From NCBI GenBank assembly GCA_023512835.1, contig CM042088.1, forward strand, positions 2,720,078 through 2,784,077: DNA of 64,000 nucleotides, given 5' to 3'. Below are positions 26,112 to 55,868 of this stretch, one piece after another. The position numbers were made by a program, and so were the translations under genes. The notes under the pieces were generated by a model. The model worked only from the letters and a program-made list of their open reading frames with translations, ran no database searches and had not been told where the DNA came from. This stretch comes from Taxillus chinensis. Lineage: Eukaryota; Streptophyta; Magnoliopsida; Santalales; Loranthaceae. Every line of letters begins with the position of its first letter. The first letter of the stretch is position 1.

Positions 26112-26177
26112 GTTAAAGAAGAAGAAGAAGAAGAGAGAGAGAGAGGGGGGGAAAAAACTGTCGGTGGTACTGTTCAT

Positions 26178-27672
26178 TGATAACGTGCATTTTATGCCGT
26201 TATTCTAGTGTTTATTTAGGATGTTTAAGAGCATGATTAGAGCCTTATTGCTTCATATATCATATATATTTGCTCTAACCCCTAGGAAGATGCTATTTGC
26301 AAATACATGCGCTTTTAAGCTGTTTTGGCAGATTTTGGACCTCACTTTTGACATAGTAGATGGCCTCAAACAATTGGCGTGCAAGAACAAAAGTTTCTTA
26401 GAATAATGTCCTCTACCTACCACAGAAATTTCAGAGCATTTGGAGCTGCACGTGAATTCACCCATTTCACGTGCAAGCATATTTTTGCCTCTCAGGCCTC
26501 TACAAGATGCAAGGAAGCTTGGGGAGAAGTTTGAGCTGATTTGGAGGTGCACGTGAATTCACCATATCACGTGCAAATTGGCGTGCAAAGATATTTTTGG
26601 ACCGATCCTATCGTTTTTCCATGCTGATCATTTGTTCCTGAAGGCCCAAGTCTAAATTGTGGATGGAAGATAGAGATTTTAAAGTTTCGAGTGCTACTTA
26701 TCAAAACTACGTCGTTTTGATAGATGGGCTAGGGTACACACCTCAAAGCCCATCCAAACTCTATAAATACAAGCCTCCACGCCTCTGCTATGCATACCTA
26801 ACCCCCCTACACGTTTTTAGAGAGAGAGAGGCTCCACGACTTGGAGGTGCTCCTTGACCTAGGAGAGCAGCCGTCGTAGCAGCCATCGCGGATTTTAGAG
26901 CTTGGATTTGAAGCTTTGTTGCGCGCGTGGATAAGAAGAAGATGTTGAGCTTTTCTGCTTTGTGTTTGCTTGTAATCATGTGTGAGTAGTCTTTTAATCT
27001 AGGGGAGCAATGTAGCCCCCTTGTTGTTTTGCTGTGTTTATGAATATTGGGTTTGGATGATTGAGTTTTGCATGTTTTATGAATCTGTTCTTAATACTAT
27101 CTTTGGATGTACACCTTGGTATTCTTATCCCTAGTCTGGGGTGGATTGAGATTCATAACTTATTTGTAATTGGTGTGATCATTATCCTTTTGCAAGTATG
27201 ATTTATTGGCTTTGCATGTTTGTGTGTTTAGATGACCATTCTGGCATACAACTCTTAAAAGGGCCTCAATGACCATTTGTTGTCCTTGGCTTATGTTTAG
27301 CATTTTTTCAATTAGACAACCCTAATACCATGAACCAGTAGAGATAACATAGGGAGGTGAAATTGTGACCCTAGATGCCTTTAATCCTTGAATCTTAATC
27401 CTAAAATCACTTTGCTTTCTTTGTTTATTCAGAAAACCAAATAAAAATTAGATCTTTAGTTTAAAAAAGAAAACTTTTTGCCAAGACATTTTATAGAACA
27501 AGAGTAATTGGGTGCTTTGATTTGAGAACTAGAGAACTAGGCTAATCCCTGTGGGTTCGACCCCTTGCTTGCTGCTATTCTTTTAGTGCAAACTCAGGGA
27601 ATTTATTATCTTGAAGAGAGATTTAACGACATTAGCTAGCTCTTTTAGAGAGGCTAAAAATTCTGTTTGTCA
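26178..27672 (+). repeat. N1 5' LTR
   Basis: It starts TGATAACGTGC and ends TTTGTCA. U3 boxes are CACGTGAATTC, CACGTGCAAATTGGCGTGC, one ACGT palindrome (26700-26719) and a TATA box (CTCTATAAATAC, 26759-26770). The U5 ends with CCCTGTGGGTTCGACCCC, a phrase typical of Athila/Tat LTRs. Confidence 0.95.
26759..26770 (+). promoter_or_regulatory. TATA box of N1 5' LTR
   Basis: CTCTATAAATAC lies about 40 bases downstream of the ACGT palindrome. The same box is at 31998-32009 in the 3' LTR. Confidence 0.8.
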
Positions 27673-27675
27673 AAT

Positions 27676-27693
27676 TGGCGCCGTTGCCGGGGA
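27676..27693 (+). other. Primer binding site of N1 (tRNA-Asp type)
   Basis: TGGCGCCGTTGCCGGGGA starts three bases after the 5' LTR. This is the primer site usual in Athila and related plant gypsy elements. Confidence 0.9.
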
Positions 27694-27907
27694 TTCAACG
27701 GTTAATTAGTTTTTAGAAATCAACATTGAGTGAAATTGTTTAAATTCTGATCTTGGTGTTTTATTTTGTCTTTTATTTTCTGTTATTTTGTGTTCTTTGT
27801 TTGTTTATTTTGCATTGTTCGGAGCTGCTGGGTGTGTTCTTGTTGTTTTTCAGGAACATACACCAAGTGTTTGAAGAATTGCTAGTTGTGTATGCGACGA
27901 GGGGAAC

Positions 27908-29353
27908 TTGTGTCCTTTAATCCAGAACCTGAACAACACTCCAATGGATAGAAAGTTTGGAGATGAGGAGGAGCTAACCATGGAACAATGTTTGGAAAGG
28001 ATGATCCAAGGAAACAAATATTTGTGGGAAAACCAAGGGAGAGATGAGGAGAATTCAATGATAACAGACCAACATGTTTATGTTCCAGGCCATGCAGCAG
28101 ATCAATTTTCATATAGTGCTTGGGATTGCACTATCTATGATCCTCCCACAAGCAGCTATTCATACCAGGAGCCTCCTTGTTATGGTGGGACTATTAATGG
28201 AGATGGTAGAGAAGTATGGCCAACTTACACCCAACCTGAGGGTGACTACTATCCACAGGAACCACCACCTGAGGAGTTTAATGGTTTCTTCAATGGATAT
28301 TCTGAGAACATATGGGTTGGGCAATATCAAGATGAAGCTTACTCTGAAGCCCCACTCTATGGCAATTATTGTCCATATCAACAACAAGAGTGGCAGCCCC
28401 AAGTTGAAGATGAAGAAACCAGAAGAGAGGGAGAGGAATTGAATGAAAGGCTAGGAAGTTTGGAGACTACCGTAAAAAATATAGAGCAATTATTGATGAG
28501 TATGGTTCAAAATACAGATAACGGAGTCTCATCTAACTCCTTTGCTGGTGACACAGAGATAGAGACTGAAGAGAATTGCAAAGCCATCACTCCAACTTCC
28601 ATGTATCAATCTTTGACATCTGCCTCACAAGAATGGGAGTTTTCTGCTAATAATGATTCTGAAGATGAAGCTCGCATTCTAGCTGGTCAAACCATTAATG
28701 ATGCTATAGACCAAGAAGTGGATACAAGGGCAATGGTTCATTATGATGAGGTTGTCCCTCCACCACAATTTAATAGCCCATGTGATGTATCCACTTCAAC
28801 TCTTCCCATGGTTGGAGCTTATGAGGACAATTTGAAGTATTTTTCTATCCAAGAAGAAGAGGAAGACTTGAATTGTTCTGGGGTGTTAGAAGAACATGAG
28901 AAACCAATAAATGACAACCGAACGATGCAGCAACAAATCTTGGATGATGATGCTATAATTCTCATCTCTGAAGGCACATCAAACCAAGGTACTCTTTATG
29001 AAGACAAGCTACATGAGCCCACCACTACTATGTTTGCTTTGGAATCATCTTCCCTTATACAAGAGAAGGAAATGCTTGACAAGGGAGGTAACCATGCGTG
29101 CATCATGACTACTCCAATTGTGGAGTATGCTGAATTTGTTTTACCACCTCGATGGAATGAGAGGAAGGAGAACCATAAGTTTGTGGAGGTGTCTCCCTAT
29201 CAACAATTGAATCACGAGTTCAAGTGGCTCCCACAGCGGTTCATTCATCCGATTGCTATGGTCTACGAGACTGCTGAGGTTTACAATGCAAGGATGAAAG
29301 CCTTTCATACATTGGTTGAGCTTAGAATGACAAAGTCTAGCTACAGACTTTAA
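27908..29353 (+). CDS. N1 open frame, gag-region-like protein of unknown function
   Basis: 481 intact codons are the only long frame of N1. The protein is acidic and rich in Glu, Gln, Tyr and Pro. Residues about 60-170 have repeated Tyr/Pro/Gly patches. About 170-202 is a charged heptad-like stretch (EELNERLGSLETTVKNIEQ) that could form a short coiled coil. The last 80 residues contain EFVLPPRWNERKE and FKWLPQRFIHPIAMVYET. No zinc knuckle, protease motif or catalytic site is visible. A second in-frame ATG lies at 27944. The stop is followed by AAAGCGCTGGTTGGGAGGCA, a phrase commonly found after the last gene of Athila-like elements, so this frame may be a relic of a fused gag-pol end. It is intact in a young element, so it may still be selected. 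The function is not known. Confidence 0.75.
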   Translation: MCPLIQNLNNTPMDRKFGDEEELTMEQCLERMIQGNKYLWENQGRDEENSMITDQHVYVPGHAADQFSYSAWDCTIYDPPTSSYSYQEPPCYGGTINGDGREVWPTYTQPEGDYYPQEPPPEEFNGFFNGYSENIWVGQYQDEAYSEAPLYGNYCPYQQQEWQPQVEDEETRREGEELNERLGSLETTVKNIEQLLMSMVQNTDNGVSSNSFAGDTEIETEENCKAITPTSMYQSLTSASQEWEFSANNDSEDEARILAGQTINDAIDQEVDTRAMVHYDEVVPPPQFNSPCDVSTSTLPMVGAYEDNLKYFSIQEEEEDLNCSGVLEEHEKPINDNRTMQQQILDDDAIILISEGTSNQGTLYEDKLHEPTTTMFALESSSLIQEKEMLDKGGNHACIMTTPIVEYAEFVLPPRWNERKENHKFVEVSPYQQLNHEFKWLPQRFIHPIAMVYETAEVYNARMKAFHTLVELRMTKSSYRL

Positions 29354-29589
29354 ATAAAGCGCTGGTTGGGAGGCAACTCAATGTTTATTGCTATGTTTTA
29401 TTTTATGTTATTTTCTTTTATTTATTTATTTTTATTCAATCAATTGTTTGCAAGCTAACCATTGTGCAGGAGACTTTGCTTCTTTCTTAACTAATCATTT
29501 GCAGGATGAGCAAATTATTGGGTCCTGAACTTGTGGAATTGTTTTTAAAGTCAAAGTCAAGGAGCAAGGAGCAAGTGAAGCCCAAACGT

Positions 29590-29905
29590 GCATGAAGATG
29601 GGCTCAACCAATTCACGTGCAAGGGCTATTTTGGTCAAAACACTCTAAAAATTTAGGGGCACGTGTATCACGCCAATTGGAGCATCTTTCCTTCTGCACG
29701 CTATATAAAGAGAGGCCATCTTCAAAGGCTTCCACACCAAAATCACTCCAGTGGGATCTTTGCTTGCTACTACATGATGGCTATTCTGCAAGGGAGAGAA
29801 ACTTGGGAAGTGCGCGGTGAGACGTCGGTTGACTTTGTGGCTCAGGTACGACGAATGGTGGCCAATGTCATCTACTATTACAATGTGCCAAACCAGGGGT
29901 AAGTG
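29590..29905 (+). other. LTR-U3-like module with TATA box and 42-codon frame inside N1
   Basis: Within the N1 interior, AATTCACGTGCAAG (29620) and CACGTGTATCACGCCAATTGG resemble the U3 boxes of the N1 LTR. A TATA box (CTATATAAAGAG, 29700-29711) follows. A short frame starts at ATGATG (29774), reads MMAILQGRETWEVRG and then VDFVAQVRRMVANVIYYYN, and stops at 29900. Its last codons overlap GGGGTAAGTG, a good splice donor. Thereafter GAGGACATAGCATATTTTAAG (about 29930) echoes the motif just before the 3' LTR. It could be an internal promoter with an acquired exon or a remnant of an older LTR. Confidence 0.45.
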
Positions 29906-31402
29906 TTTTTCCTACTCCCTATTTTATGCCATGAGGACATAGCATATTTTAAGTGTGGTGTATGGGAGTGACTTAAGCCACTTGCTTGTCTTTTATGTTG
30001 TGATTGCATGTTTTATTTAAAAAAAATAAAAAATAAAAAAATTTAGTTGCATGATTGTTTGAGTTGTTTGCTTGAATGATTTGCTTGTGGAGACATGGAT
30101 ATTAAGTATGCAATTTTGGCTTAAAATTTAATTTTTATGCCACATTAGTATCATGTTGTGATAAGGGTGTTAAAGTAGTTAAAATGTGCTCTGAATTGGT
30201 TTAATCATGTCTTTATCTTTTAAATGATATCACCATGTTTTTGGAGCTGAGTTTTAAATATTAGCTGAGCATGAAATGCTATGATAGACCTAAGTAACCC
30301 TTAAAGTTGAGTGAAAAAGAAATGCAAAATGAGAAAAACTTCTTTTAGCCTTTGAGTGACATTTATGGTTTATGGGTAATAGTTTGATTTGCTACTCTTC
30401 TTGCATTCAACATTGGTTATTTAATGGTAGGAGTCAAGTAAGCATGTGATTACTTATTAGTGCTCCGTGTTTGGTGTGTTGCTAGTGATACAAGGCCATT
30501 TAAGTCACTTTGACTTCCTATGTATCCTAATTTTTGTTTGTTGTGTTGTAAATATAAAAGGCTGTGATATAGAATGTGAAAAAGCCATCACTTAATTGGA
30601 AAATGGGATGTGAGACATCAATGAATTTCTGTCTCTCCTTATGTAGCAAAATGGCAAGGAGTTTGCATTAAAAAAAAAATCAGTCTTATTTATGTGTTAT
30701 ATGAGTAAAAAAAAGAGTGAATAATCCATCAAGGGAGAGCATAAAATGCAACCTTGTAAGGTTATTACTAAAAAAAAAAGATTCAGAATAAAAGCCACAC
30801 TGGCTTGATGTTTATGTGTGATTATTTATTTATGAAGCCACATTGGCTAAATTGTGTTTGTTTTAAGAGTGTTGAGCTCAATTCTTTAGCTCATGATTTT
30901 GTTTTATTGAGTTAGTAGACTAGAGTGTGAGTTCAAATAAAGTAGAATAGAGAGTGTGTTTTCTTTGATGAGCACAATAGGGAACTCTCATGATTGCTTG
31001 GCAAGTACTTAATCAATAGCTGATGGCGAGTGTAGAGATAGAGTTTTCCATCCATTGTTCATTGATAGGTATTGGGCTTGAGAATTATTATATTTGAGTG
31101 AGGCTGCTTATCCTTGGTAAGAACTTAAAGGGAAACTAGGTGCTATTTTTATCATGGATTGTTTGCTCATATCTGAAATTTAAGTGGTGATATTGCATGG
31201 TTGTTGGACTAGGGATATGAACATGAATGAACTAAGTTATGACTCATTTTGATGCTTAAATTCCCATTTCATCATGATAGAGTTGCATGCTTAGGAAACC
31301 ATGATTCTCCTTGATTGTTATTTTATTTTTCTTCCGTTTGACTGCGTGTTTATTTTATTTTTGCATGCTTGTATGTTTTTGCTTGAGGACAAGCAATGGT
31401 TC
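29906..31402 (+). other. N1 interior 3' region, no genes
   Basis: AT-rich, with no open frame of note. Short A runs (30012-30045, 30670, 30712, 30770) and repeated 'CCACATTGGCT/CCACACTGGCT' phrases (30796, 30838) are visible. It ends in GCTTGAGGACAAGCAATGGT, a standard 3' end of Athila-like interiors. Confidence 0.5.
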
Positions 31403-31416
31403 AAGTGTGGTGTATT
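31403..31416 (+). other. Polypurine-like tract of N1
   Basis: AAGTGTGGTGTATT lies directly before TGATAACG. It occupies the position of the plus-strand primer and has the form usual in Athila-like elements. Confidence 0.65.
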
Positions 31417-32911
31417 TGATAACGTGCATTTTATGCCGTTATTCTAGTGTTTATTTAGGATGTTTAAGAGCATGATTAGAGCCTTATTGCTTCATATATC
31501 ATATATATTTGCTCTAACCCCTAGGAAGATGCTATTTGCAAATACATGCGCTTTTAAGCTGTTTTGGCAGATTTTGGACCTCACTTTTGACATAGTAGAT
31601 GGCCTCAAACAATTGGCGTGCAAGAACAAAAGTTTCTTAGAATAATGTCCTCTACCTACCACAGAAATTTCAGAGCATTTGGAGCTGCACGTGAATTCAC
31701 CCATTTCACGTGCAAGCATATTTTTGCCTCTCAGGCCTCTACAAGATGCAAGGAAGCTTGGGGAGAAGTTTGAGCTGATTTGGAGGTGCACGTGAATTCA
31801 CCATATCACGTGCAAATTGGCGTGCAAAGATATTTTTGGACCGATCCTATCGTTTTTCCATGCTGATCATTTGTTCCTGAAGGCCCAAGTCTAAATTGTG
31901 GATGGAAGATAGAGATTTTAAAGTTTCGAGTGTTACTTATCAAAACTATGTCGTTTTGATAGATGGGCTAGGGTACACACCTCAAAGCCCATCCAAACTC
32001 TATAAATACAAGCCTCCACGCCTCTGCTATGCATACCTAACCCCCCTACACGTTTTTAGAGAGAGAGAGGCTCCACGACTTGGAGGTGCTCCTTGACCTA
32101 GGAGAGCAGCCGTCGCAGCAGCCGTCGCGGATTTTGGAGCTTGGATTTGAAGCTTTGTTGCGCACGTGGATAAGAAGAAGATGTTGAGCTTTTCTGCTTT
32201 GTGTTTGCTTGTAATCATGTGTGAGTAGTCTTTTAATCTAGGGGAGCAATGTAGCCCCCTTGTTGTTTTGCTGTGTTTATGAATATTGGGTTTGGATGAT
32301 TGAGTTTTGCATGTTTTATGAATCTGTTCTTAATTCTATCTTTGGATGTACACCTTGGTATTCTTATCCCTAGTCTGGGGCGGATTGAGATTCATAACTT
32401 ATTTGTAATTGGTGTGATCATTATCTTTTTGCAAGTATAATTTATTGGCTTTGCATGTTTGTGTGTTTAGATGACCATTCTGGCATACAACTCTTAAAAG
32501 GACCTCAATGACCATTTGTTGTCCTTGGCTTATGTTTAGCATGTTTTCAATTAAACAACCCTAATACCATGAACCAGTAGAGATAACATAGGGAGGTGAA
32601 ATTGTGACCCTAGATGCCTTTAATCCTTGAATCTTAATCCTAAAATCACTTTGCTTTCTTTGTTTATTCAGAAAATCAAATAAAAATTAGATCTTTAGTT
32701 TAAAAAAGAAAACTTTTTGCCAAGACATTTTATAGAACAAGAGTAATTGGGTGCTTTGATTTGAGAACTAGAGAACTAGGCTAATCCCTGTGGGTTCGAC
32801 CCCTTGCTTGCTGCTATTCTTTTAGTGCAAACTTAGGAAATTTATTATCTTGAAGAGAGATTTAACGACATTAGCTAGCTCTTTTAGAGAGGCTAAAAAT
32901 TTTGTCTGTCA
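31417..32911 (+). repeat. N1 3' LTR
   Basis: Same length as the 5' LTR, offset by exactly 5239 bases. The ACGT palindrome has one change here (CTATGTCG at 31945). Confidence 0.95.
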
Positions 32912-37406: not shown

Positions 37407-37412
37407 AGGCTC

Positions 37413-43413: not shown

Positions 43414-43710
43414 TGATGGTCCCTTGGAGCCTAGAGGGGGGTGAATAGGCTCTTATTTAAACTCTTTTTAATCTCTTAAGACACCACACTTATCTAGTTA
43501 AGTGATAGAATCACTGCGGAAGATAACCAGATAGTGGAAGTATTTTATTTTATTATCAAGAGATAATTACAACAAAATAGAAGCAAGACTCTCTTACACT
43601 CTATTTACAAAAGGATTCACACACTAGCCTAGATTATATCTTTGAGCTCTTGTGCATACACAGGGTTAATTCAGGCTCGTTCGCACACCTACACAAATGT
43701 ACAAGTATGA

Positions 43711-43722
43711 ATATTTATACAA
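43711..43722 (-). promoter_or_regulatory. TATA box of C1 LTR
   Basis: ATATTTATACAA on the plus strand; L2 has the same box near 19457. The repeat-rich U3 lies directly upstream on the minus strand. Confidence 0.7.
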
Positions 43723-44014
43723 ACATTCCTAAGAGACAACCTTGGAACTTGTAGTTTCGGAATGCGTTCAGCACTAACTATTCCTCGGTAATCTCTCTGC
43801 CTTGACTGCTGCGGTTTGTGGAGCTCAAGATCCTGGGTTTGAAGAGTATAAGTGCCTTTGTGAGTTCCCAAATATAATTGAGGTTGTGTCCACATATCCG
43901 AGTGATCCACGTGTAAGATTCTTCAGGTTCTCAACGAGTTTGTCTTACATCGGGACACCACGAGCTGATAACTTTAAATGCGGTAGTTTGAAGTAGCATC
44001 TTCTTGGTCCGGTG

Positions 44015-44490
44015 TAATTTTCCTTACTCCATTGCTAATGAAGCTCGGAACCTTACTCTGTGTCATTGGTTGCTTACTCCGTATCTATTAGGTACTGGAA
44101 TCCTTAGTCCGTGTCAGTGCTTCCTTATTCCGCATGTAAGTTCCTTACTCCGTATGTAAGTTCCTTACTCCGTATGAGTGAGTGGCCCGGATTCCTTACT
44201 CCGCATCTAGTTTCCTTACTCCGTGCGAATAAAGACTTGGGTCCTTATTCCGCATCAATACTTCCTTACTCCGTATGTATGAAAGACTCGGATGCCTTAC
44301 TCCGTGTCTCCTTTAGTTCGCTTGAGGGGAAGACTTAACTTTTTACCTCCATGTCAAACCTTTTACTTCGTGCGACCTTGTAGACCAAGACTCTTACTCC
44401 GCATCAGTTTGACTTAGTCCGTTTGAGGCATTAGGAACAAATTCCGTAATCCGTAGCTTTTAAGTTCTTAGTCCACACGAATGTTCCTTA
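44015..44490. repeat. CCTTACTCCG repeats in C1 U3
   Basis: At least a dozen copies of CCTTA(C/T)TCCG with variable spacing. Near 44130-44175 the spacing is the 20 bases seen in L2. In the direction of C1 transcription the motif is CGGAGTAAGG. Confidence 0.85.
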
Positions 44491-44708
44491 TTCCGTATGT
44501 ATTGGTGACTTGGTTATTTACTAAGTGTTTGACGACACTCACTCTTGTCCGGATCAGGATTATGTATCCTGTCCTTAGCTTTGCTCTCACGAGTGTATCT
44601 CCGGATTAATAACATATCTTCTGCAATGATCAAAGAAACACAAAAGATCTCAGATCAAATTACATAAGGCTTTATCAGCATTATCCAAATTCTGGGCTTG
44701 ATCCAACA

Positions 44709-44725
44709 ATCTCCCCCAATTATGG
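44709..44725 (-). other. Polypurine tract of C1
   Basis: ATCTCCCCCAATTATGG reads CCATAATTGGGGGAGAT on the minus strand, immediately before TGTTGGATC. Confidence 0.85.
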
Positions 44726-44851: not shown

Positions 44852-47575
44852 TTAAGGTACATAAGGCTTACTATACTTGAAGATCATAGTTGCTGCTTTC
44901 TCTCTAAGCTCCATTGTCTGCTTCATCGTATAAGTGGTGTGTTGGCTCCAAGATTTGTCCACAGATAAGAATGACTTGATGAAGTAACAGACAAAGGCCC
45001 CACAGCTATCTCCATCCGGCTGTTGTGGCACTTGCTTCTTGCCCCGAAATGTCGCCTTCAACTTCTCAGTTGGATTCAAGGGTGTGATGCCCAACTCTTC
45101 ATATAATCCAACTTTCTTCACAGCTTCAATCAGCCTGAGACACAGTGGTTCTCATTGATTCTTTCTTACATAATGCTCCACAATCTGATGGGAATCAATC
45201 AGAATCATTTGTTTGGACTGAATCATGAAGACAGCCATCATGAAATGTGGCGACATGATCCGATACGGAATGAGGATAGTTGAGAGAGTTTTCCATGGCT
45301 TGCTATCCTCAGCAGTTCTGTCGATGAAGGACTGAATGAGATCTACACTGGGAAGATAGCCTTCATTCCAGCACGGCAGAACTTCAAACAAGTGCCCATC
45401 CTTGTATAGAGATAGAAACAGCCTCATCTCCATTTTAGCAGCCCTAGAGAAGTTGTCAATGTCTTCTGTTGTAAAGAGTCCTTTTTCCGAACAAAGGGTC
45501 CGAATGTCGTCCGGGGAAAAGGGGTACAGGTTAGAGAGACATCTTCTCTCGGCAGAAGACACAGCATAGAACTTCATTGCCTTATGCACGCTTCCATCCG
45601 CATCAAAAGGGTCACACGCCGCGTATGATGGGAGGAAGGTGTCAGCTGCGGATGGAGAGGATGGAGGAAGAGCTACACTCGAGGAGCTTGGCTGAGAGAA
45701 GTGGCTACGTTTGGGAATTTGAACTCCCTGAAGCAATGAAGAGGCAGGCCGCTTCTCAGCACGAGTGGTTGGTTGTGCAGGAGGAGCAGAAGGATCAGAT
45801 GACACTTTCTCCCCCGGTTTGGCAGATCGCCGGGAAGCAACGGGAGGACGAGCCATCGTGTGCGCCAGGTCCGCGAAGGAGGTAGACAAGGAATGGACGG
45901 ACGAGGCAACGAGATCCATCTTCTGTTCCATGGAAGTGGAGGAATCAGTGAGAGCGGAGAGGAGTTGGGCGCCAAGTGCAACAACCTTGGCGGTGATGGC
46001 GGATATTTGGGCGCTATGAGCTTGGGCGTGTCGGTCCAGCTGGGCGGAGAGCACAGCGTCGGAGTGGACCGTGCCAAAAGAAGCACATCCAAGGACCAAC
46101 TCCGGAGCTTTGGAGGACTCCCCCGCATGAACAGGAGCAGGAGTGCGCTGGGCAGAGGAGTCCGCAGGAGTATTAGCAGCAGCAGCAGAAGGGGCATCCG
46201 GAGCATCAGAGGCATCCGGAGCAGCAGACCCGCTTTGACCAGATAGGTCAACAACGGGAATGGCGGCAGCAGGAGAAGAAGGTCCAGCCTTAGCAGGGGA
46301 AGAACTCCGTGTGGCATGGACGGGGCTGGAAGGGGTAGGGAACGGCACATCTGGAATGGAGGCCGGCGTAAGAAAGCCTTGGTCCAAGTTCCAGATGATC
46401 ATGGTCTCCGGGGATTGGGTATGGCACATGTAAAACACCCGGAGATCGGTGTCAGGAATGGAGGTAGTGTGGGCAAGGTTGAAATGTAGCCATAGATCCG
46501 TTAAGGTGTCGGCGGAGAGATGGTCAAGGTAATCTCGGGGTTGAGGTAGGGGAGGCAAAGGAGCTTTTGGAGTAGATTCCGGGACATCAGCAATAGCAGC
46601 AGCAACGGCGGTATCAACCGCGGCAGCAACAGCGGAAGTGGAGGGAGTGGGGACATCCGCAGCAGAAGGGGCTAAAGAAACAGCTCTAGGAGCACTGCGC
46701 TGAGATGGCCCCGCAACCTCGGAGGGTTCGGCACGGATGCTGTGCTGGGAGGCCCGAGAAATGGAGGGCACAGCAACGGACCGAATCCGGGAGGACCAGT
46801 GAGCAGAGCTGACCTCTGGGGCATGGTTGGCAGAGGGGTCACCAACAGAACTGCCTTGTTATTCCGAAGCAGGGAGGGGGCGAAGAGCTGCAGAGGGACG
46901 ACGGGCTGTTATGTTCCCATCAGGCGTCAGATAGCGAAGGTAATAAGCTGGATAGAATGAAACAGCATCAGAGCGGGCGAAATGGTCCGGATGAAGATGC
47001 CAGAAGACAATGCTGAGTATGCGCCCGAAAGAACGGTTCTTGGGTCCAGTCTGCAGTAGTCGGAATAAAAATGTCCCCCAGTCCATTGGAAGACCTTCGA
47101 AAACGCCGTACATGGCCAGAAGAAGGTCGTACGGAGTGGAGTCCAGGGTGGATGTGCGAGCCAGTAAACATCGACTCAAGATGGTCGCCATACAGCGATA
47201 GCGACCTTGGAAGGACTTCACCTTGTATTTCTTGCCTTTGTAGGTGCAACCCATAGAAGCTACCATGGGATCGGCATCGGGGCGCTGTGGTTCACCGGGG
47301 GGTAGATGGAGAGCAGCGCGGAGAACGACGGGGTTAATGAGGATGGATTCACCGTGAACATAGGAGATGATGGAGTCGGTGGTACAGCGAATCCGTTGGT
47401 AAAACTCGAGAATGTCGTCTATAAGCAGATCGACAGGATTAGAGATCAGGTCGAGTAGGTGAGAGGCTTCTAGAAGAGGGCGAATATCGGAAAACCAGTC
47501 CGGAGGGTTGGAGACAACGCTCCAATCAACCAGATGGCCGGGATTAACGCCGGAAAGAGAGATTCTGGGTGCCAT
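44852..47575 (-). pseudogene. C1 third ORF: transposon-protein-like domain fused to Ulp1-like cysteine protease
   Basis: A single minus-strand frame of 908 codons starts at ATG 47575 (ACAATGG context), broken only by TAA (46859-46861) and TGA (45152-45154). Residues 1-238 (MAPRISLSGVNPGHLVDW, DILEFYQRIRC, YVHGESILINPVVLRAALH, YDLLLAMYGVFEGLPMDW) resemble the plant transposon protein N-terminal domain. A Pro/Ser/Ala-rich linker follows. The C-terminus has the Ulp1 (C48) pattern: SPHFMMAV with His (45245-45247), LIDS with Asp (45194-45196) 17 residues on, then QPDGDSCG with Gln and Cys (45002-45004) six residues apart. These are the spacings of yeast Ulp1. The TGA separates Asp from Cys, so the copy is dead as read. 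GC content is higher than in the pol genes. No membrane segment is evident, so it is not a typical env-like protein. Domain assignment is by motif; the role is unknown. Confidence 0.8.
46241..46261 (-). other. SUMO-interacting-motif-like stretch in C1 third ORF
   Basis: The linker contains IPVVDLS, which matches the classic hydrophobic SIM core (V/I-V/I-D-L-T/S). It lies about 255 residues before the catalytic His. Such short motifs can arise by chance. Confidence 0.4.
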
Positions 47576-47700
47576 TGTAGATGAAAGTTGAAGGGCGAGA
47601 GGAAAGGTGAGGTCTTGGGGATCAAAGAAGCAACGAGAGGTTTAGGGATTTGAAAAGGGTAACGCTCGTGCTTCGCAGGAATGACCAGAATATATAAGAC
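47576..47700 (-). promoter_or_regulatory. Putative separate promoter and leader of C1 third ORF
   Basis: A TATATAT box (plus strand AATATATAAG, 47690-47699) lies about 115 bases upstream of the ATG at 47575. The leader between them is pyrimidine-rich (for example CCTCACCTTTCCTCTCGCCC) and ends ACAATGG, like an ordinary plant gene leader. The transcription start is inferred. Confidence 0.45.
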
Positions 47701-49271
47701 CGAGTCCGTAAATGTCAGCGGGTCTAGTAATTTAGCGAGTGAAACAGTGAACCGCTTGACAGGCTGATGTCATTAGTCTTGATATCGATGCGCCTCCGAA
47801 TTAAAAGATGACGTGGAGGCGGCATGACCAAATAAGGGTAACAGCTGTTCACCTTCCGGAGAAGTGTGTGCATCCTGAGATATGCATTTAATGAATCATC
47901 ATGATTCCTCCTCAAAAGCACGCGATATAAAAGAAGACATGGATTATCAGAATTTGACAGTGTCTGGAGTCCGAAGGAATGAACCGAAAATCATCCGGAA
48001 TTAACGACAGTCGAGTGAAGAGTATCCAGATGAAAAGTAGACCGTTTCCGTAGTAACAAAGTGTGGTGAGAGAGAAGTAGATTCCTTTGCTTGTCAATAA
48101 GTCGAAGAGAAGAGAAGTACCACAACACTTCAAATCCAAGACTATGGACTAGATTTACCAATAAGGTTGCAAAGAAAAACTGAACCTGTAGCTTAAAACA
48201 AGATAAACTAAAAATACAAAAGCTGAATAGGCACAGATTAGTACGGATAGGAGAAAATAGTCAATGAAGAGCTACATAATCTGAACTAAGGAGAAACAGA
48301 ACTTATACATTACAAAGAATGTAATAGACATATACATACGAGAGAATGATCATATTACTGAATCAGGGCATATGTCAGATAGAGATACACAAGTACATAT
48401 AGGTCAACATAGCGAAACCGTCCTGCTGAACGACGTAGCTAAGATTAATTAAAGATCATATGATTTGATCAAACTAGGATTCATGAGTGAAAAATGAGGA
48501 AGCGGACACATGTCAAATGCAAGCAATTGATTATCCGATTAAAATGCATGGTTGAAGAAAAGAAAAACATCCAAGCATGCCTCAATTCCGTTTCAACAAT
48601 GCATGTCCAGTCAGATCTGGAAGTAAAGGTTTAGAGGGAAGAGTATCCGAGACATATTAGGGGGTCATTACTGAGGTAATAGATGAAGCTTAAGCTCCCC
48701 CGTAGATCATTTGATCCTCTCATTGAAAGGCTCCCCCTCAAATAGACAGCCAGGAAAGAGGTCATGAGACATATACGGGGGGTATTACTCGAATAATTTA
48801 AAGCATTTTCTCCCCCGTAGATTGTGCAATCCTCTCGGTAGACCTTTCCGGCTTATGGAAATTCAGCACTGTCTATCTTTTTAGGAAACTATACTTCAGA
48901 AGCTGATCAGACTGCGATTGAGTATTCAACCACCAGGCATTCCAAGCTAACCCATTTCATTTCTTTAACTATACGTGTTAATAGAGTAATCTAAATGAGC
49001 AGACTTTTGTCATGTGGTGATCAGTGGAAATTAAGATCATGAAACCAGAAAGAAGTTAATCATATAAACTTTAATCATGTTTGCTTAAACGACTTCAGTC
49101 GGGAAACGCAAGCATCCTCCCATTATGAAGTTGATATTAATATCAGAAGCATGAAGCCGTTAATCAGTAAGTATGATCAGCATTAAAAAACAGTATGTAT
49201 CATCTACTTCCACTAAAAGCACAATGCATGTTCTGATAGTAAGTATATTGTTGAGTAATTTAAATGAGAAA
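47701..49271 (-). other. C1 spacer between pol and third ORF, with duplicated polypurine tracts
   Basis: About 1.6 kb without a coding frame. Two imperfect direct repeats of about 72 bases (48659-48731 and 48775-48847) each contain GGGGGGT(C)ATTACT, then CTCCCCCGTAGAT, ATCCTCTC and an A/T spacer. On the minus strand these give GGGGGAG purine runs. Another, GGCTCCCCCTC, lies at 48730. Extra polypurine tracts between pol and LTR are known in Sireviruses. Confidence 0.6.
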
Positions 49272-51269
49272 CTATGCAGAGAAGTCAAGCATACCTAATC
49301 GGATGAGTAGTTCAGAGAATCTTGCATCAGGTAGGGGCTTTGTAAGTATGTCTGCTAGTTGATCTTCAGTAGCAACATGTTCTAGGGAAATGTGATTTTT
49401 GAGAACATGGTTGCATATGAAGTGATACCTGACCTCAATATGCTTCGTCTTAGGGTGCATGACAGTATTGTTGCTGATAGCAATTGCACTAGTGTTGTCG
49501 CAGTAGAGTGGAATAGATGACATGTTGAAACCGTAGTTAGTAAGTTGACTTTACGTCCGGTAGTAGTGGCGCAAGAACTCCCAAAGAGCTATATATTCCG
49601 CCTCGGCAGAAAGGTTGATACGGAATTCGCTTTTCTGAACCATGAAATTAATCTATTTCCAAGAAACTGACACGTACCACTTGTGCTCTTCCTGTCGATG
49701 CGACATCCAGCGAAGTCGGCATCAGAGTATCTGGATAAGGTGAAATTGGACTCCTTTGGGTACCAGAGTCCCAAATTCATCGTTCCCTTGAGATACCTTA
49801 ATATCCGTTTAACATGAAGCATATGTGACTCCTTGGGATTCGCCTGATATCGTGCACAGATGCAAGTTGCAAACATAATGTCTGGGCGACTTGCTGTAAG
49901 ATACAGCAAGGATCCTATCATCCCTCTGTAGTCAGTCACATTTACTGATATGCCGTCCACATCAGGATCTAACTTGGCACTAACAGGCATGGGAGTTTTG
50001 ACGGGAGATGAACCTTCCATACCAAACTTCTTAATAAGATCGCGAGTGTACTTAGCTTGATTAATGAAGATTCCTTCCTTCAATTGTTTAACTTCTATTT
50101 CGAGGAAGTAGGATAGTTCTCCCATCATGCTCATCTCAAACTTGCTTGTCATCAACTTAGCAAACTCTTCACAAAGCTTCGGATTCGTTGATCCGAAAAT
50201 GATATTATCCACGCATATCTGTATGATCAGAGTGTGTCCTTTCTCTTTTCGTAGAAATAAGGTGGTGTCTATCTTCCCTTTTTGGAAGTTGTGAGCAAGT
50301 AGGAATTCTGACAGTGTGTCATACCAGGCTCTTGGAGCTTGCTTCAAACCATATAAAGCTTTCCGAAGTTTGTAGACTAGATGTCCTGCTTTAGGTTCAA
50401 TGAAACCGGGAGGTTGTTCTACGTAAACCTCCTCTTGAAGATCTCCATTCAGGAATGCACTCTTGACGTCCATTTGATAAACTATGAAGTTTTCATATGA
50501 AGCATACGCCAGAAACATTCGGATTGCCTCAAGTCTTGCTACTGGAGCAAAGGTCTTGTCACAGTCTATTCCTTCTTCTTGACGATATCCTTTGGCTACC
50601 AGTCTGGCTTTGTTCCGGATTACTATTCCATCGGTATCAAGCTTGTTCCAGAACAACCATTTAACTCCAATGACTTGCTGAGACTTAGGCCTTGGTACTA
50701 AAGTCCACACATTGTTTCTCTTAAATTGATTCAGCTCTTCTTGCATGGCTTCTATCCAATTCGAATCCTGAAGAGCTTCATTTGCCACCTTTGGTTCTAT
50801 TTGAGATAGAAAACACGAGTAAAGACTCATGTTGGATGTGGCTGCTCTTGTTCTTACACCAACAGTAGGATCACCAATCACTTGATCTGAGGGATGGTTT
50901 CGGGTCCATCTGTAATTCTGTGCATGTGATGGATGATCTTCAATAATTTGAAGCTCTGCCAGATTAGGTGGTTCAGGTGTATCTGCTGGTTGAGCTTCGT
51001 CCAGACTAGATGTTTCCGTATTAGAAGGTACGGTAGAACTAGGTGGTTCTTCAACACTGTTTCTTTCAGTGTTAACTGGTCCGGACGGACTTGAAGGTGC
51101 TCCGAAATTTTGGGTTTCCGTAGGAGTATGTCCGGAGCTTAATGGTAGTCCTGAGTCCGAGTCATCCGTAGCATCATCCATATAATTTCTTTGTGCCTCG
51201 CTGATGCCACGTGGTTGGTCAGAATGTGTAACAGGAACATTCATAAACTTCGAATAATCGACATTGCTG
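49272..51269 (-). pseudogene. C1 reverse transcriptase and RNase H
   Basis: Landmarks from the minus strand: [86 protein letters not shown], then CVDNIIFG where YVDDIIFG is expected. The second catalytic Asp is Asn (codon at 50204-50206). It continues [37 protein letters not shown] and [20 protein letters not shown] frameshift near 49610 separates the RNase H tail (LYCDNTSAIAI, HPKTKHIEVRYHF, DQLADILTKPLP, 49272-49523). The active-site change and the frameshift make it inactive. Confidence 0.95.
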
Positions 51270-52387
51270 TCCAGGACCTGCACATTAGAACTTGAAGAAG
51301 CAACTTTTGACCAATCAAGATTAGTTTCATCAAAGGTCACATGGATAGATTCTTCAACTTTAAAAAGTTTTCTATTGAAGACCCGATAAGCTTTGCTATG
51401 TAATGAGTACCCGACAAAGATCTCATCATCAGATTTTGGTTCAAATTTATTCCGGGGTTCTTTGCCGTTGTTCAATATATAGCATGTACACCCAAAGGCT
51501 CTGAAATGTGAAATTGAAGGCTTTCGTCCTCTCCACATCTCATAGGGTGTTTTCATGGTAGATTTATTTATTAGAGTTCTGTTCTGAATATAGCAGGCAG
51601 TGGACACAACTTCAGCCCATAGACTGAGAGGTAGCGTTGCCCCTGCTAACATAGATCTTCTAGCCTCAACTAAGGTACGATTCTTGCACTCAGCTACTCC
51701 ATTTTGTTGTGGAGTTTTGGGCGCAGAGAAGTCATGCTGTATGCCCTATTCAGAACAATATGATCTTATTTCTGAAAAATCAAATTCTGTACCATGATCA
51801 CTCCTGATGCATTTTATGCTCAGTCCTTGTGAATTGCTTATCCAGTTGAAGAGATCTACAAGATGCTTAAAAGTTTGATCCTTTGATTTCAGGAACATTA
51901 CCCATGTGTATCTGGTGAAATCATCGATAACCACAAGGGTATATCTCGCACCAACCAGTGACGGAACAGAAATAGGACCACAGAGGTCCATATGAAGAAG
52001 TTGTAGAGGAGCAGTTATTGAATTAACTGATTTGCTCTTAAAGCTATGTTTGGTCTGTTTGCCCAGTTGGCATTCTCGACAGAGAGTGTCTCTAGAGAAT
52101 TTGAGTTTAGATAGACCAGTGACAAGATCAAGTGAAGCTAATTTAGACAATGTCTTAAAGTTTAAATGTGCGCATCGCTTGTGCCATAGCCAACTATCTT
52201 CATCTGAAGCTTTAGTGAGGAAGCATACAGGGTCAGAAGAATTATTTCTTAAGACCACTGAGTATATGTCCCCATCTCTTGATCCGGATAACTTAACATC
52301 TCCGGATAAGTTTTCTCTTACTGTACAAGTGTTGGACATAAAAGAAACCGTAAATCCTTTGTCACATAAATTACTGACACTTAACAA
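51270..52387 (-). pseudogene. C1 integrase
   Basis: The GAG-pre-integrase HHCC domain is intact: WLWHKRCAHLNFKTL and CRECQLGKQ. Catalytic residues follow in LLHMDLCGPI and IRSDHGTEF, then after a TAG stop (51746-51748) [13 protein letters not shown] with the Glu. The C-terminal [18 protein letters not shown] segment appears as [19 protein letters not shown], with [16 protein letters not shown] spacer rich in Ser, Pro and Thr follows before the RT. The single stop is the only lesion seen here. Confidence 0.95.
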
Positions 52388-52990
52388 ATTATGATTTAAA
52401 CCTTCAACTAGTGCAACTCTAGTGATTGATACACAGCCGTTAGTTAAAGTGCCATACCCGACAGTCTTACCTTTGCTGTTGCCACCATATGAAACGGATG
52501 GACCTCGTTTTTCATTAACTTCTACAAGCGAGTCCGATCACCCGTCATATGTCCGGAGCATCCACTATCGAGGATCCACTTGCTTTGATTGATCTTTAAC
52601 TTCAAGTGATCCGGCAATGCATTCCAGAGATGCTCCTAAAAGACAACAGTTTACACTTTTGGTGCCCAAACTTATTTCGGGCAGTTAGAGAGAGCAGTAG
52701 TAATGTCAACAGTTCCAGATTTGATTTTGCTAGGACTTTTAGCTCTCCAAATTGACTTTGACTTGTTAGTTTCAGCTGCCTCTTTTATTTGGGTTTTCTT
52801 GGGAGAGACACTCCTTTGTGGTTTAGATTTTGTTTTGCTCGAAGAACCCTTTTTATTCAACTGATCTTTATTGGTACGAATTTGATTACAAAGCCAGTTA
52901 TCAGATAAACTCCAACATTCATAGTGATAATGACCCATTTCCCTACAAATGGAACAGACACTATAATGCGAAGTACAAACAGGGGATACA
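52388..52990 (-). pseudogene. C1 second zinc knuckle and aspartic protease
   Basis: CSICREMGHYHYEC (about 52918-52960) is a CX2CX4HX4C zinc knuckle. Then come a Lys/Ser-rich stretch (SKTKSKPQRSVSPKKTQ) and the protease core SKWILDSGCSGHMTG with catalytic Asp near 52570. A frameshift right after GDRTRL (about 52530) breaks the frame; VALVEGLNHNLLSVSNL picks up the integrase frame. Confidence 0.85.
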
Positions 52991-53212: not shown

Positions 53213-54931
53213 CTATGGTGCCACCTGAAATGAAACCATCCAACGGTTTAGATTACTAACAGGATATAAGTTGGTTAGTTTTGGAGTGAAATCTAGAGGA
53301 CACTCAGTAGTTTGAGCATTGGAGGTTGATGATTCGGAGCCTAGGCCAGGTTTGACTCGAATATTATCCGGATCAGTCCTAAATGTAGAGGCTATTTCCC
53401 CGGACTTAAGCCACTTACGATTTATTTCCCTTTCCTGTTCAAGTTCATTCTCGAGTCTTTTTACTATAACTTTTAGGCCTGAAAGATTGGTATTTAGCAG
53501 ATGATTTTCAGCTCTTAGATTGTGATACCAAGCTTCTTTTCCTCTGAAGTCAGCTATGTCCTTTTCAAGTCTAGTAATAGTAAATTCAAGACATTTATTC
53601 TGACTTTCCATATCTTTGTACATTTGAGTAATTATTAGTCTCTCATTCTTTTCATGATCACAAACAGTAGTAAGAGATTCTAATTTACTCATGAGCTCAG
53701 AGATAGAAGGTACCTCGATTTGCCATGAGGCAGATGTTCGGCTTAGGAGTTGGCTCATCATCCGAGGATTCCTCCTCTTCTTCCGAGCCACTGATGTACT
53801 TTGTCACGAACGCCTTCCTCTTGTTCTTGCTGTTGTCTGAGGTGGTACGTCGAGGAGTAACCTTGTCACTTTTCTCTGCCGTCTTAGATTTGGATCTGCA
53901 TTCCTTGGCCCAGTGACCGGGTTTCCCACAATTAAAGCATTCTTGGGAGCTCGACTCCGATCGTTCCTTCCTTCTGGATGATGAGGAGCCTCTTCCGAAT
54001 CCTTTTCTACTTTTCCGAAGGAATCGTTCAAAGGATTTGACGAGAAGAGCTATTTCCTCTTCTGCGTCTGAGTCAGAATTCTCTGACTCATCCGTATCAT
54101 CCTCCTGATGATTACTGGAGCATTCCGTAGCTTTGAGAGCTACCCCTTTTTCTTTCCGAGCTATTTTCTCATCACGGTCAGTGTATCTGAATCTGGCCTC
54201 ATGAGTCCGAAGCTCTCCATATATTTCCTCAAGGGCGATAACGGCCGCTTTTTGTCAGCTTGCATCTTGAGCTGCTTGGAGTAGTAGCGATCCGGCAAGG
54301 ATCGAAAGAACTTGTCATTGATTTGAGACTGAGTGTAGTGCTCATTGACAGTTTTTAGCTCTAGAATGAGCTTGCCGAATCTCCGATAGATGCTTTCAAG
54401 GGATTCGCCAGGTTTGTGATTGAAACTCTCAAAATTCTGTCTGAGAGCACATATCACATTTTGCATCTGGGACTGACTTCCCTCATAGAGGATTGTCAGT
54501 TTATCCCAGACAGCTTTTGCTGACGTGCAGCCCTGGACATCCGTGAAAGCCTCGGAATCCAAAGACGATGTAACATAAGCCAGAGCCTTTTCACTAGCGC
54601 ACTGCCAGGCTCTTTCATCGTTGGTAAGTTCGGTATCCGTCTTTGGCCTCCTAACTCCATGTTCTCCGATAGTCATTGGAATTAGAATCTCCTGATGAAA
54701 ACATGGCCACATGAGATGATCATGGCATACCATAAACATCATCATGCGAGCTTTCCACTGGGAGAAAAGCTCAGGTGTGAATTTGGGCGGTTTTGTCAGA
54801 GTAAAACCAGAACTCCGTGGTTGAGGAGCGGCGACAGTAGCAGGTTGAGGTGGGTCGACGTTTTCACTGCTGCTTCGATTCGGGATGGGCTCTTGTGCAC
54901 CTCCGGAGTTAAGGCGAGTGTTGAATAGCAT
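53213..54931 (-). pseudogene. C1 gag with coiled coil and zinc knuckle
   Basis: The natural start is the ATG at 54929-54931 (MLFNTRLNSGGAQEP); codons further right belong to the G2 LTR. Capsid features: FTPELFSQWKARMMMFM, AWQCASEKALAYVTSSL, AKAVWDKLTILYEGSQ and GESLESIYRRFGKLI. A frameshift lies near 54255; the correct frame then carries KGVALKATECSSN, an acidic stretch and CFNCGKPGHWAKEC (53899-53940), a CX2CX4HX4C zinc knuckle. After NICLMAN a frame continues through ELMSKLESLTTVCDHEKNE and LKVIVKRLENELEQEREIN, a long coiled coil of about 110 residues typical of Sirevirus gag extensions. Confidence 0.9.
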
Positions 54932-54933
54932 AC

Positions 54934-55868
54934 TGTTATCACTCGTTTTCGTCCGGGCCGAACCCAAATGATAAAATATACAGAGTCGCCACCAACTGTT
55001 TTTGGGGTACAGTTGGATACCCTCTACCTTGAGTAGTTAAGATGTGGTCTGTGTTACCAGAGATGAGTTCGGGAGTTGGTTACGTGTTGGGAAGGTTTTA
55101 GCACCCCTACAACGCCCTTTCGGTACCTGTCTTAGGAGGAGAAGGTTTCTATTTATTTTTATTTTTTTTGCTTTTATTTTTTATTTTTTTTATTTTTTTA
55201 TTTTTAAATCACATTTAATCTAAATCTAATTCTCAAAATTTTATTTTAATCCGTCACATGCTAATTAATTAATAGGCTTAATTACTACTCACGAGCTAAT
55301 TATTAAATTTAAAAGTTAAAGGTTAAATTTAATTATCATAATCTAAGTACAAATTATTTAAATTAGCCTAATTATTTACTAAATTTTAAATATGAAAATT
55401 ACTTACAAAAGTTAATTACTAATTTATCTAATTACTAATGTTATTTAATTCATTACGCGCTAATTAATTAATTACCAGGCTTACTTACTATTGACATGCT
55501 TAAATTTGAAAAGTTAATTACAAACTTATTAAAAATTAACTACCTAATTATGCTGATTTAATTATAAACTAACTACTAATTTACTACACAAAATAAAAAT
55601 TAAAGAAGGAAAGGAATAAAAACCTGGAATATTGTGGACCGAGGGCGCCCTTCTCCCGAATGCCTCCTTTTTCTACAAAAGAAGGGAAAAGAAAATTAAT
55701 TTGACTATAACCGCAGTTCTTTTTTAGAACCGCAGTTAAGTTTACACTTTACTCTTTTTTTTGAGTTTTGTGTAATTGATGGATGGTGTCTTTGGAAGGG
55801 GAGAGGAACCCTTTATATAGGAGTCATGGAGAAGGAAATTTTGTAAAACCTCCAATGGGGGTCCAACA
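54934..55868 (-). repeat. G2 3' LTR
   Basis: The plus strand starts TGTTATCACTCG and ends GTCCAACA, 935 bp. A minus-strand TATATAA box lies at 55813-55821, only about 50 bases from the LTR start, so the U3 is very short. The interior (55150-55600) is AT-rich with TTAATTA phrases. The first 210 bases match the G1 LTR. Confidence 0.85.
55813..55821 (-). promoter_or_regulatory. TATA box of G2 LTR
   Basis: CTTTATATAGG on the plus strand reads CCTATATAAAG on the minus strand, followed by a GGTTCCTCTCCCC leader. Confidence 0.65.

What the first reader, a model, noticed from the sequence alone, without database searches (positions are those of the whole stretch)
44852..47575. A copia retrotransposon carrying a Ulp1-like cysteine protease fused to a transposon-protein-like domain
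Seen: one minus-strand frame of about 908 codons between pol and the 3' LTR of C1, with two in-frame stops. The C-terminus has His, Asp 17 residues later, then Gln and Cys six apart in QPDGDSCG, the C48/Ulp1 pattern. Known: Ulp1-like domains are familiar in Mutator-like and some other plant DNA transposons; Sireviruses are known for env-like or unknown ORFs after pol. Inference: this Sirevirus lineage replaced or built its third ORF from a transposon-derived or host Ulp1 gene, which could remove SUMO from host silencing or integration factors. I do not know of this arrangement as a described standard feature.
Basis: partly seen in the sequence, partly recalled or inferred. Interest (0 to 1): 0.88.

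Follow-up and report, generated by a model that had tools for sequence, protein, structure and literature searches.

The report
Shared protease gene in plant retrotransposons
A plant copia-type retrotransposon carries a third gene ending in a SUMO-protease-like (Ulp1) domain; the gene shows signs of selection across the copies examined, and a gypsy-type retrotransposon in the same genome has the same two-part gene, which offers a testable function for genes long called envelope-like.

Summary
Minus-strand frame 44852-47575 (908 codons, stops at codons 239 and 808) lies between pol and the 3' LTR of a SIRE-like copia copy that has lost its 5' LTR. Its end matches Peptidase_C48 (1.8e-6, above cut-off) with His-17-Asp and Gln-6-Cys; its start resembles PF20167 (below cut-off). 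It is not a private capture or nested insertion: the host genome (521 Mb) has at least 77 matches, window included. In the 30 best the frame is usually broken, 28 align end to end, and 25 show the PPT/LTR junction at the same distance. Variants shared by four or more copies have N/S 0.25 (N-terminal) and 0.32 (C48) of neutral; singletons are near neutral. So this "envelope-like" gene is a two-domain predicted ubiquitin/SUMO-type protease shared by copia and gypsy elements. Activity and target are inferred. No relative turned up in other plants. The answered literature searches show no description, but Athila+Ulp1 never ran and supplements were not readable.

The parts
43417..44708 (-). 3' LTR of the SIRE-like element (TG...CA, 1292 bp)
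   Evidence: Junction TGGGGGAG-AT/TG and LTR end GGGACCA; related LTR copies at 9697-11137, 19256-20233 and 20359-21459
44709..44718 (-). Terminal polypurine tract TGGGGGAG plus AT of the AT/TG attachment site
   Evidence: compare AGGGGGAG-AT/TG of Sireviruses in PMC2829016 (passages); one base differs
44852..45151 (-). C-terminal half of the C48 domain; Gln codon 45022-45020, Cys codon 45004-45002
   Evidence: Pfam PF02902 1.8e-6; codon positions; 36% identity over 56 aa to the gypsy homologue
45155..45676 (-). N-terminal half of the C48 domain; His codon 45247-45245, Asp codon 45196-45194
   Evidence: No Pfam or PDB match on its own; 29% identity over 99 aa to the gypsy homologue, E 6e-11, spanning His and Asp; best of 500 shuffles 24.3 bits against 50.4
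45677..46858 (-). Ser/Pro/Ala-rich linker (judged by eye)
   Evidence: Translation; weakest constraint of the three parts, dN/dS 0.46
46862..47575 (-). PF20167-like (Transposase_32) N-terminal domain from the ATG
   Evidence: Pfam 3.1e-4 here, 1.1e-5 to 0.0023 in the four other copies sent, all below the cut-off of 45 bits; 23% identity over 210 aa to the gypsy homologue, E 4e-17
47642..49271 (-). Linker between pol and the third gene, no frame of note; AGGGGGAG copy at 48738
49272..52537 (-). pol: integrase (rve), SH3, RVT_2 reverse transcriptase; end piece taken as RNase H by eye
   Evidence: Pfam; no RNase H Pfam hit on 49275-49550
53700..55036 (-). gag (Retrotran_gag_2, zf-CCHC)
   Evidence: Pfam
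29657..29899 (+). C48 remnant, Ser at the Cys position, inside another LTR element
   Evidence: tblastn 7.6e-5 and 32.0 bits against at most 25.4 in 500 shuffles; 32% over 68 aa to the gypsy homologue; no Pfam hit; multicopy
26177..32911 (+). LTR element (98.8% identical LTRs) holding that remnant
   Evidence: Self-BLAST; PBS-like TTGGCGCCGTTGCCGGGGA seen, called Athila-type from recall

Best explanation
The frame is the third gene (eORF-3'F, 'envelope-like') of a SIRE-like copia family. SHOWN: it joins a PF20167-like N-terminal domain, a Ser/Pro/Ala-rich linker and a C48 (Ulp1/SENP-type) domain; it sits after pol and before the 3' LTR in most copies checked; shared variants show purifying selection; and a collinear homologue is the third gene of a Ty3/gypsy element in the same genome. 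INFERRED: the protein is made late or from its own message, the N-terminal part and linker place it on a partner (nucleic acid, Gag or a host protein), and the C48 domain cleaves SUMO or another ubiquitin-like modifier from host proteins that restrict expression or integration of the element; the analogy is with Ulp1-bearing VANC/KIU proteins of Vandal transposons, whose Ulp1 part has itself no proven role. The window copy is decayed (two stops) and is not expected to be active.
For: C48 above cut-off in the window and in 3 of the 5 other copies sent (the other two 20.5 bits against 20.7). His, Asp and Cys invariant in 8 chosen C48 regions (3 SIRE-like, 2 gypsy, 3 others; the catalytic Gln is Arg in one). 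The profile of those 8 finds SENP1 at 1.5e-9, catalytic residues aligned in the alignments shown, and yeast Ulp1 at 1.1e-6. Family: 77 scored matches, the window plus 76 at 86-92% over the middle piece; in 30 loci, window copy included, His 30/30, Asp 29/30, all four residues 20/30. dN/dS 0.26 / 0.46 / 0.31 for N-term / linker / C48 against neutral simulations with medians 0.74 / 0.88 / 0.63. Variants in at least 4 copies: N/S 0.25 / 0.41 / 0.32 of neutral; singletons 0.99 / 0.78 / 0.96 (C48 binomial p 2.8e-5, Fisher 3.9e-4). Gypsy homologue: 674 open codons, C48 5.6e-14, PF20167 7.1e-8; collinear.
Against: No activity, expression or structure evidence. A single-sequence AlphaFold model of the His/Asp piece was useless (pLDDT 40). 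In the 5 SIRE-like copies sent, Pfam covers at most profile positions 150-211, and phmmer of one such copy against PDB gives only SENP1 E 0.02; the 1.5e-9 profile result leans on the other rows. The 8 aligned regions were picked for being open; over all 30 copies only 20 keep all four residues. The aromatic after His is Phe, not the usual Trp (recalled), in SIRE-like and gypsy rows. C48 selection is weaker than on RT (RVT_2 shared ratio 0.04), and the C48 dN/dS bootstrap interval 0.24-0.40 only just clears the simulated neutral range 0.41-0.93. 2 of 20 third-gene copies had no pol match upstream and 5 of 20 pol copies sent had no C48 match at the expected place. Two database searches found no relative in other plants.
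Confidence: 0.55

Rival explanations
1. The protease cleaves the element's own proteins (Gag, Pol or the third protein itself), like the adenovirus protease, rather than host SUMO conjugates.
For: Weak Peptidase_C5 (adenovirus) hit 0.079 on the same stretch; adenain among weak PDB matches (0.061).
Against: SENP/Ulp1 are far better matches. The elements' pol should already hold an aspartic protease (recalled; not shown here).
Confidence: 0.15
2. The C48 fold is kept as a binding or structural module of an envelope-like or chaperone protein, without catalysis.
For: Ulp1-like remnant with Ser for Cys at 29657-29899, with 151 matches counted in the genome; Phe instead of Trp after His; 10 of 30 copies lack at least one catalytic residue.
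Against: His, Asp, Cys invariant in the 8 regions chosen, and catalytic-core variants shared by four or more copies at 0.27 of neutral (small counts, 7 N and 11 S).
Confidence: 0.2
3. Simple nested insertion of a DNA transposon or retrocopy into C1.
For: C48 occurs in plant Mutator-like elements (PMC13317346, passages).
Against: PPT/LTR junction at about the same distance in 25 of 30; C48 downstream of pol in 15 of 20 pol copies sent, plus 3 more read from hit coordinates. No inverted repeat of 12 or more bases (exact seed 10) brackets the frame (shorter or diverged ends would be missed). Selection across copies.
Confidence: 0.02
4. SIRE-like and gypsy elements each picked up a PF20167 domain and a C48 domain separately from the same pool of mobile genes, so the shared architecture is parallel and not one inherited or exchanged gene.
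For: In the C48 tree the SIRE-like, gypsy and other C48 groups are not resolved; the four SIRE-like copies are as close to L033/L034 (76-92 bits) as to gypsy (69-82 bits). PMC6317226 leans to independent acquisition or very fast evolution of eORFs (passages).
Against: Both domains, their order, a linker and the position after pol are shared, with significant similarity in both domains.
Confidence: 0.3

Closest known systems
SIRE/Sirevirus eORF-3'F ('envelope-like' ORF), PMC6317226 and PMC3414828 (passages read)
   Same: Copia, same position and orientation; eORF-3'F in 74% of SIRE elements
   Different: [quoted passage not shown] 'ulp1' and 'peptidase' do not occur in the main text of PMC6317226; its Additional file 4, which lists domains, was not seen
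Athila 3' additional ORF with Transposase_32, sunflower, PMC11728184 (passages read)
   Same: PF20167-type domain in a sense ORF of a Ty3/gypsy element
   Different: 487 aa, no C48 reported ('protease' and 'SUMO' do not occur in its main text)
Ulp1-bearing VANC (KIU, Kaonashi) of Vandal/MULE DNA transposons, PMC13317346 (passages read)
   Same: Mobile-element protein with a C48 domain; family linked to escape from silencing
   Different: DNA transposon; N-terminal part is VANC; precise function of its Ulp1 domain said to be unknown
SENP1/SENP2 and yeast Ulp1 (solved structures)
   Same: Profile E 1.5e-9 (SENP1, catalytic residues aligned) and 1.1e-6 (Ulp1)
   Different: Host desumoylases; the first half of the domain is strongly divergent here

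Membership tests
SIRE / Sirevirus (Ty1/copia) | Copia pol order with RVT_2, integrase before RT | tested here: met
   Pfam on the pieces
SIRE / Sirevirus (Ty1/copia) | Terminal AGGGGGAG followed by AT/TG at the 3' LTR | tested here: inconclusive
   TGGGGGAG-AT/TG: attachment site exact, octamer differs at base 1
SIRE / Sirevirus (Ty1/copia) | Several identical PPT copies clustered near the 3' LTR (PMC2829016) | tested here: not met
   One exact AGGGGGAG (48738), 4 kb from the LTR, and four CGGGGGAG, two of them inside the third gene; none between the gene and the terminal PPT. Hence 'SIRE-like', not filed as a strict Sirevirus
SIRE / Sirevirus (Ty1/copia) | Forward eORF between pol and 3' LTR | tested here: met
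SIRE / Sirevirus (Ty1/copia) | Reverse transcriptase phylogeny within SIRE | not tested
   Listed protein relatives are plant copia Pol of unstated lineage; no tree built
Peptidase_C48 (Ulp1/SENP) | Pfam PF02902 above curated cut-off | tested here: met
   28.4 against 20.7 bits; 3 of 5 other copies also above
Peptidase_C48 (Ulp1/SENP) | His, Asp, Gln, Cys in order with 17 and 6 spacing | tested here: met
   Window; gypsy homologue
Peptidase_C48 (Ulp1/SENP) | Whole catalytic domain recognised | tested here: inconclusive
   SIRE-like copies match at most positions 150-211 of 217; gypsy homologue 81-181
Peptidase_C48 (Ulp1/SENP) | Cleaves SUMO or another ubiquitin-like protein | not testable with these tools
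   Needs an enzyme assay
PF20167 Transposase_32 | Score above curated cut-off of 45 bits | tested here: not met
   21.1 here, 18.3-25.9 in four other copies, 30.5-34.6 in three gypsy-type loci; hence 'PF20167-like'
Retroviral-type envelope | Signal peptide, transmembrane segment, membrane fusion | not tested
   No predictor run; the domains found suggest an enzyme instead
Athila (the gypsy element L083/L086) | Athila lineage by RT tree or PF03078 | not tested
   Named Athila-type from recall only; Ty3/gypsy by RVT_1, RNase H, integrase; gag piece weak Retrotrans_gag 0.0074; PF03078 search unanswered

The most novel reading that the evidence does not exclude
The 'envelope-like' third genes of SIRE-type (Ty1/copia) and Athila-type (Ty3/gypsy) plant retrotransposons descend from one old PF20167-C48 protease gene that has passed between the two superfamilies; the apparent chaos of plant eORFs is largely fast divergence and loss of catalytic residues in this one gene, and its job is to strip SUMO or a related modifier from host factors that silence or block the elements.
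Probability: 0.3. Interest if true: 0.87.

Novelty: new variant of a known kind. Interest (0 to 1): 0.7.

Why it matters
Plant retrotransposon 'envelope-like' ORFs have long been known without a proven function; PMC6317226 asks whether they have one at all (passage). A recognisable protease domain that shows selection, and is shared by copia and gypsy elements, turns that into a direct enzymology and genetics question, and suggests that two unrelated retrotransposon lineages use the same tool on the host's ubiquitin-like modifier system.

Tried and rejected
Protein-database searches with the C48-containing piece (region 395-568; 244 candidates) and the N-terminal piece (420 candidates) found no relative. 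The database does hold plant copia Pol (7991 hits), so this means no relative sharing words and of fitting length; the N-terminal search excluded full-length proteins by its length rule. A viral-contig scan found nothing. A Pfam scan of the C48 remnant gave no family. The single-sequence fold was uninformative. The C48 tree did not resolve SIRE-like against gypsy. The co-location control was faulty: minus-strand pairs were not shifted, hence a mean of 2.05; I replaced it with an analytic expectation of 0.09 pairs against 5 observed. In the keep-length alignment one copy looked stop-free but has frameshifts; I use the counts. Pairs with under half of the codons comparable were dropped from the dN/dS (378 of 435 pairs kept for the N-terminal part, 435 for the others). 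Considered and rejected: nested insertion, chance frame, recent private capture. Attempts to count copies of the gypsy third gene, to search the genome with the last piece of the frame, and to place the gypsy lineage by PF03078 did not complete.
Full report
OBSERVATION. The minus-strand frame from ATG 47575 to stop 44852 is 908 codons (final stop included) with two internal stops, at codon 239 (TAA, 46861-46859) and codon 808 (TGA, 45154-45152). In 1000 dinucleotide shuffles the best of three frames never had fewer than 14 stops (mean 26), so the frame is coding in origin. The three pieces were searched apart. The last hits Peptidase_C48 at 1.8e-6, 28.4 bits against a cut-off of 20.7; the first hits PF20167 Transposase_32 at 3.1e-4, below its cut-off; the middle one hits nothing. 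His777, Asp794, Gln852 and Cys858 are in order with spacings 17 and 6. The motif alone is weak evidence: a His-x16-Asp pair at a fitting distance occurs in 6.7% of shuffles.

SURROUNDINGS. Upstream on the same strand are copia gag, zinc knuckle, integrase and RVT_2; downstream is TGGGGGAG-AT/TG and an LTR of 1292 bases. The Sirevirus junction is AGGGGGAG-AT/TG (PMC2829016, passages), so the attachment site fits and one octamer base does not. The cluster of identical PPT copies near the 3' LTR, which that paper calls a Sirevirus feature, is not there: one exact copy lies 4 kb away, and four CGGGGGAG lie in the linker and inside the gene. I therefore write SIRE-like. No 5' LTR was found; by eye, gag sequence abuts gypsy-LTR-like sequence at about 54950, so the copy cannot be dated by its LTRs.

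FAMILY IN THE HOST GENOME. The window lies in an unnamed 521-Mb genome (264 contigs, nine of 48-60 Mb among those seen). The middle piece found 77 scored matches of 10404 first-look candidates: the window and 76 others at 86-92% identity. I aligned the 30 best, window copy included: 28 align from first base to within 2 bases of the last, two begin at bases 504 and 660, one has a deletion of about 260 bases. A pattern for the PPT/LTR junction, allowing two variant bases, is found 128-136 bases after the frame in 25 of 30; 5 lack it. I fetched the upstream region of 20 of these 30: 18 have the pol match, four of them clearly partial, and 2 do not. In the other direction I took 20 of the 62 pol matches; 15 have the C48/linker sequence at the expected place and 5 do not (the 5 were not followed up). 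I had left out three better-scoring pol matches because one search already lists a third-gene match about 2.8 kb downstream of them; with these it is 18 of 23. So the gene is a standing part of the family.

STATE AND SELECTION. Of the 30 copies 1 has neither stop nor frameshift; the C48 region is free of both in 8, and 6 of these keep all four catalytic residues; over all 30, 20 keep all four. His is kept in 30, Asp in 29. Of 73 stop cells 57 are CAG>TAG (19), CGA>TGA (14), CAA>TAA (11) or TGG>TAG/TGA (13), the C-to-T type expected of methylated copies. Pooled pairwise dN/dS is 0.26 for the N-terminal domain, 0.46 for the linker, 0.31 for the C48 region. Neutral change simulated with the family's own fourfold-site spectrum gives medians of 0.74, 0.88 and 0.63, so raw dN/dS overstates constraint and must be read against these; the C48 bootstrap interval 0.24-0.40 lies just below the simulated range 0.41-0.93. 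The cleaner test splits variants by sharing: singletons, mostly post-insertion, are near neutral (N/S 0.99, 0.78, 0.96 of neutral), variants in two or three copies lie between (0.58, 0.73, 0.64), and variants in four or more copies are lowest (0.25, 0.41, 0.32) (binomial p 3e-13, 1e-6, 3e-5; Fisher against singletons 1e-8, 0.002, 4e-4). Variants are not independent on a tree, so these p-values are approximate. On the RT domain (18 copies plus the window) the shared ratio is 0.04: the third gene is constrained, but less than RT. The 30 copies are the best matches, not a random sample.

A SECOND KIND OF ELEMENT. Searching the genome for the two Pfam families (150 C48 places scored of 4309 candidates; 147 PF20167 places from 150 scored of 869) gave 5 pairs on one strand with C48 1.5-1.8 kb downstream of PF20167, against 0.09 expected (the permutation was faulty and is not used). 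I fetched 3 of the 5 (L083-L085). L083 has a 674-codon open frame about 1 kb after Ty3/gypsy RT, RNase H and integrase frames, with C48 at 5.6e-14 and PF20167 at 7.1e-8; L084 has the same order with stops, after a gypsy integrase; L085 has both domains in pieces but no pol frame of 110 aa or more upstream in the stretch held. The window pieces align with the L083 protein in order: N-terminal 23% over 210 aa (4e-17), His/Asp half 29% over 99 aa (6e-11), Gln/Cys half 36% over 56 aa (1e-8). Scores are 67.4, 50.4 and 38.5 bits against at most 28.1, 24.3 and 26.2 in 500 shuffles each. A natural copy of the window family with an unbroken frame aligns with it at 9e-17 (C48 region, 225 aa) and 2e-15 (N-terminus, 201 aa). 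blastn finds no nucleotide similarity (E 1e-3), so the relation looks old. I call the gypsy element Athila-type from recalled sequence features only; its gag piece gave a weak Retrotrans_gag hit (0.0074) and the PF03078 search did not complete. A further C48 locus, L035, has a short PF20167-like match upstream (44 aa, 1.1e-5).

A THIRD TRACE IN THE WINDOW. At 29657-29899 (+), inside an LTR element with 98.8% identical LTRs, lies a short frame like the C48 end, with Ser for Cys. It beats 500 shuffles (32.0 against 25.4 bits), has no Pfam hit, and has 151 matches in the genome, a lower bound.

FOLD. Eight C48 regions chosen for being open (3 SIRE-like, 2 gypsy, 3 further ones) share invariant His, Asp and Cys; the catalytic Gln is Arg in one. 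Their profile finds SENP1 at 1.5e-9, with the catalytic residues aligned in the alignments shown, and yeast Ulp1 at 1.1e-6. This leans on the mixture: a SIRE-like copy alone gives 0.02, the gypsy one alone 0.02. A single-sequence AlphaFold model of the His/Asp piece was uninformative. The C48 tree does not resolve SIRE-like, gypsy and the other groups.

MECHANISM. Shown: domains, position, selection, sharing between copia and gypsy. Inferred: an active ubiquitin-like-modifier protease, aimed by the N-terminal part. [quoted passage not shown] Self-processing and a non-catalytic role remain open.

KNOWN AND NEW. SIRE elements commonly have a forward 3' eORF (74%), split into 19 groups of no or very little similarity and doubtful function (PMC6317226, passages). 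PF20167 is on record in an Athila 3' ORF of sunflower (PMC11728184, passages). Literature searches answered: Ulp1+Sirevirus, 1 paper, the review; two of Ulp1 / LTR retrotransposon / additional open reading frame, 34 papers, 20 listed; Ulp1+Copia+retrotransposon+protease+plant, 14 papers, 13 listed; Peptidase C48+LTR retrotransposon+gag, none; PF20167, 1 paper; a six-term search, 13 papers, 12 listed; Sirevirus and env-like terms, 5 papers; Cotzilla or Sirevirus, 57 papers, 15 listed. From these listings and the passages opened, none describes this arrangement. Athila+Ulp1 failed four times, many papers are not held, and supplements could not be read, so novelty is provisional.

Noticed in passing
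window 26177-32911 (+): LTR element with 98.8% identical LTRs, no long pol-like frame in the listing (internal region not searched systematically), a 492-aa frame (27875-29353) without Pfam hit, and a C48 remnant with Ser for Cys that is multicopy.
   Followed up: partly
window about 33776-43416 and 54950-64000 (-): Two gypsy copies about 86% alike, with the SIRE-like copy between them; repeats of about 29 bases at 56049-56655.
   Followed up: no
window 9697-11137, 19256-20233, 20359-21459: Three further related LTR copies, the last in the opposite orientation; an N gap lies at 18756-19255.
   Followed up: no
window 42944-43456 (-): Weak DUF7745 match (4.8e-5, below cut-off) overlapping the end of the 3' LTR.
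   Followed up: no
L032, L033, L034, L036 (G000): A separate group of C48 frames (up to 453 aa), at 33-92 bits to the SIRE-like and 53-88 bits to the gypsy C48 domains, with no PF20167-like match in the stretch held; element type unknown.
   Followed up: partly
G000: Many strong PF20167 places (up to 106 bits, frames up to 685 codons) with no listed C48 nearby; only 5 of 147 listed places pair with a listed C48, but both lists are truncated.
   Followed up: no
L001-L030: Stops in decayed copies recur at the same codons (for example 172, 583, 852) and are mostly C-to-T, as methylation damage would give.
   Followed up: partly
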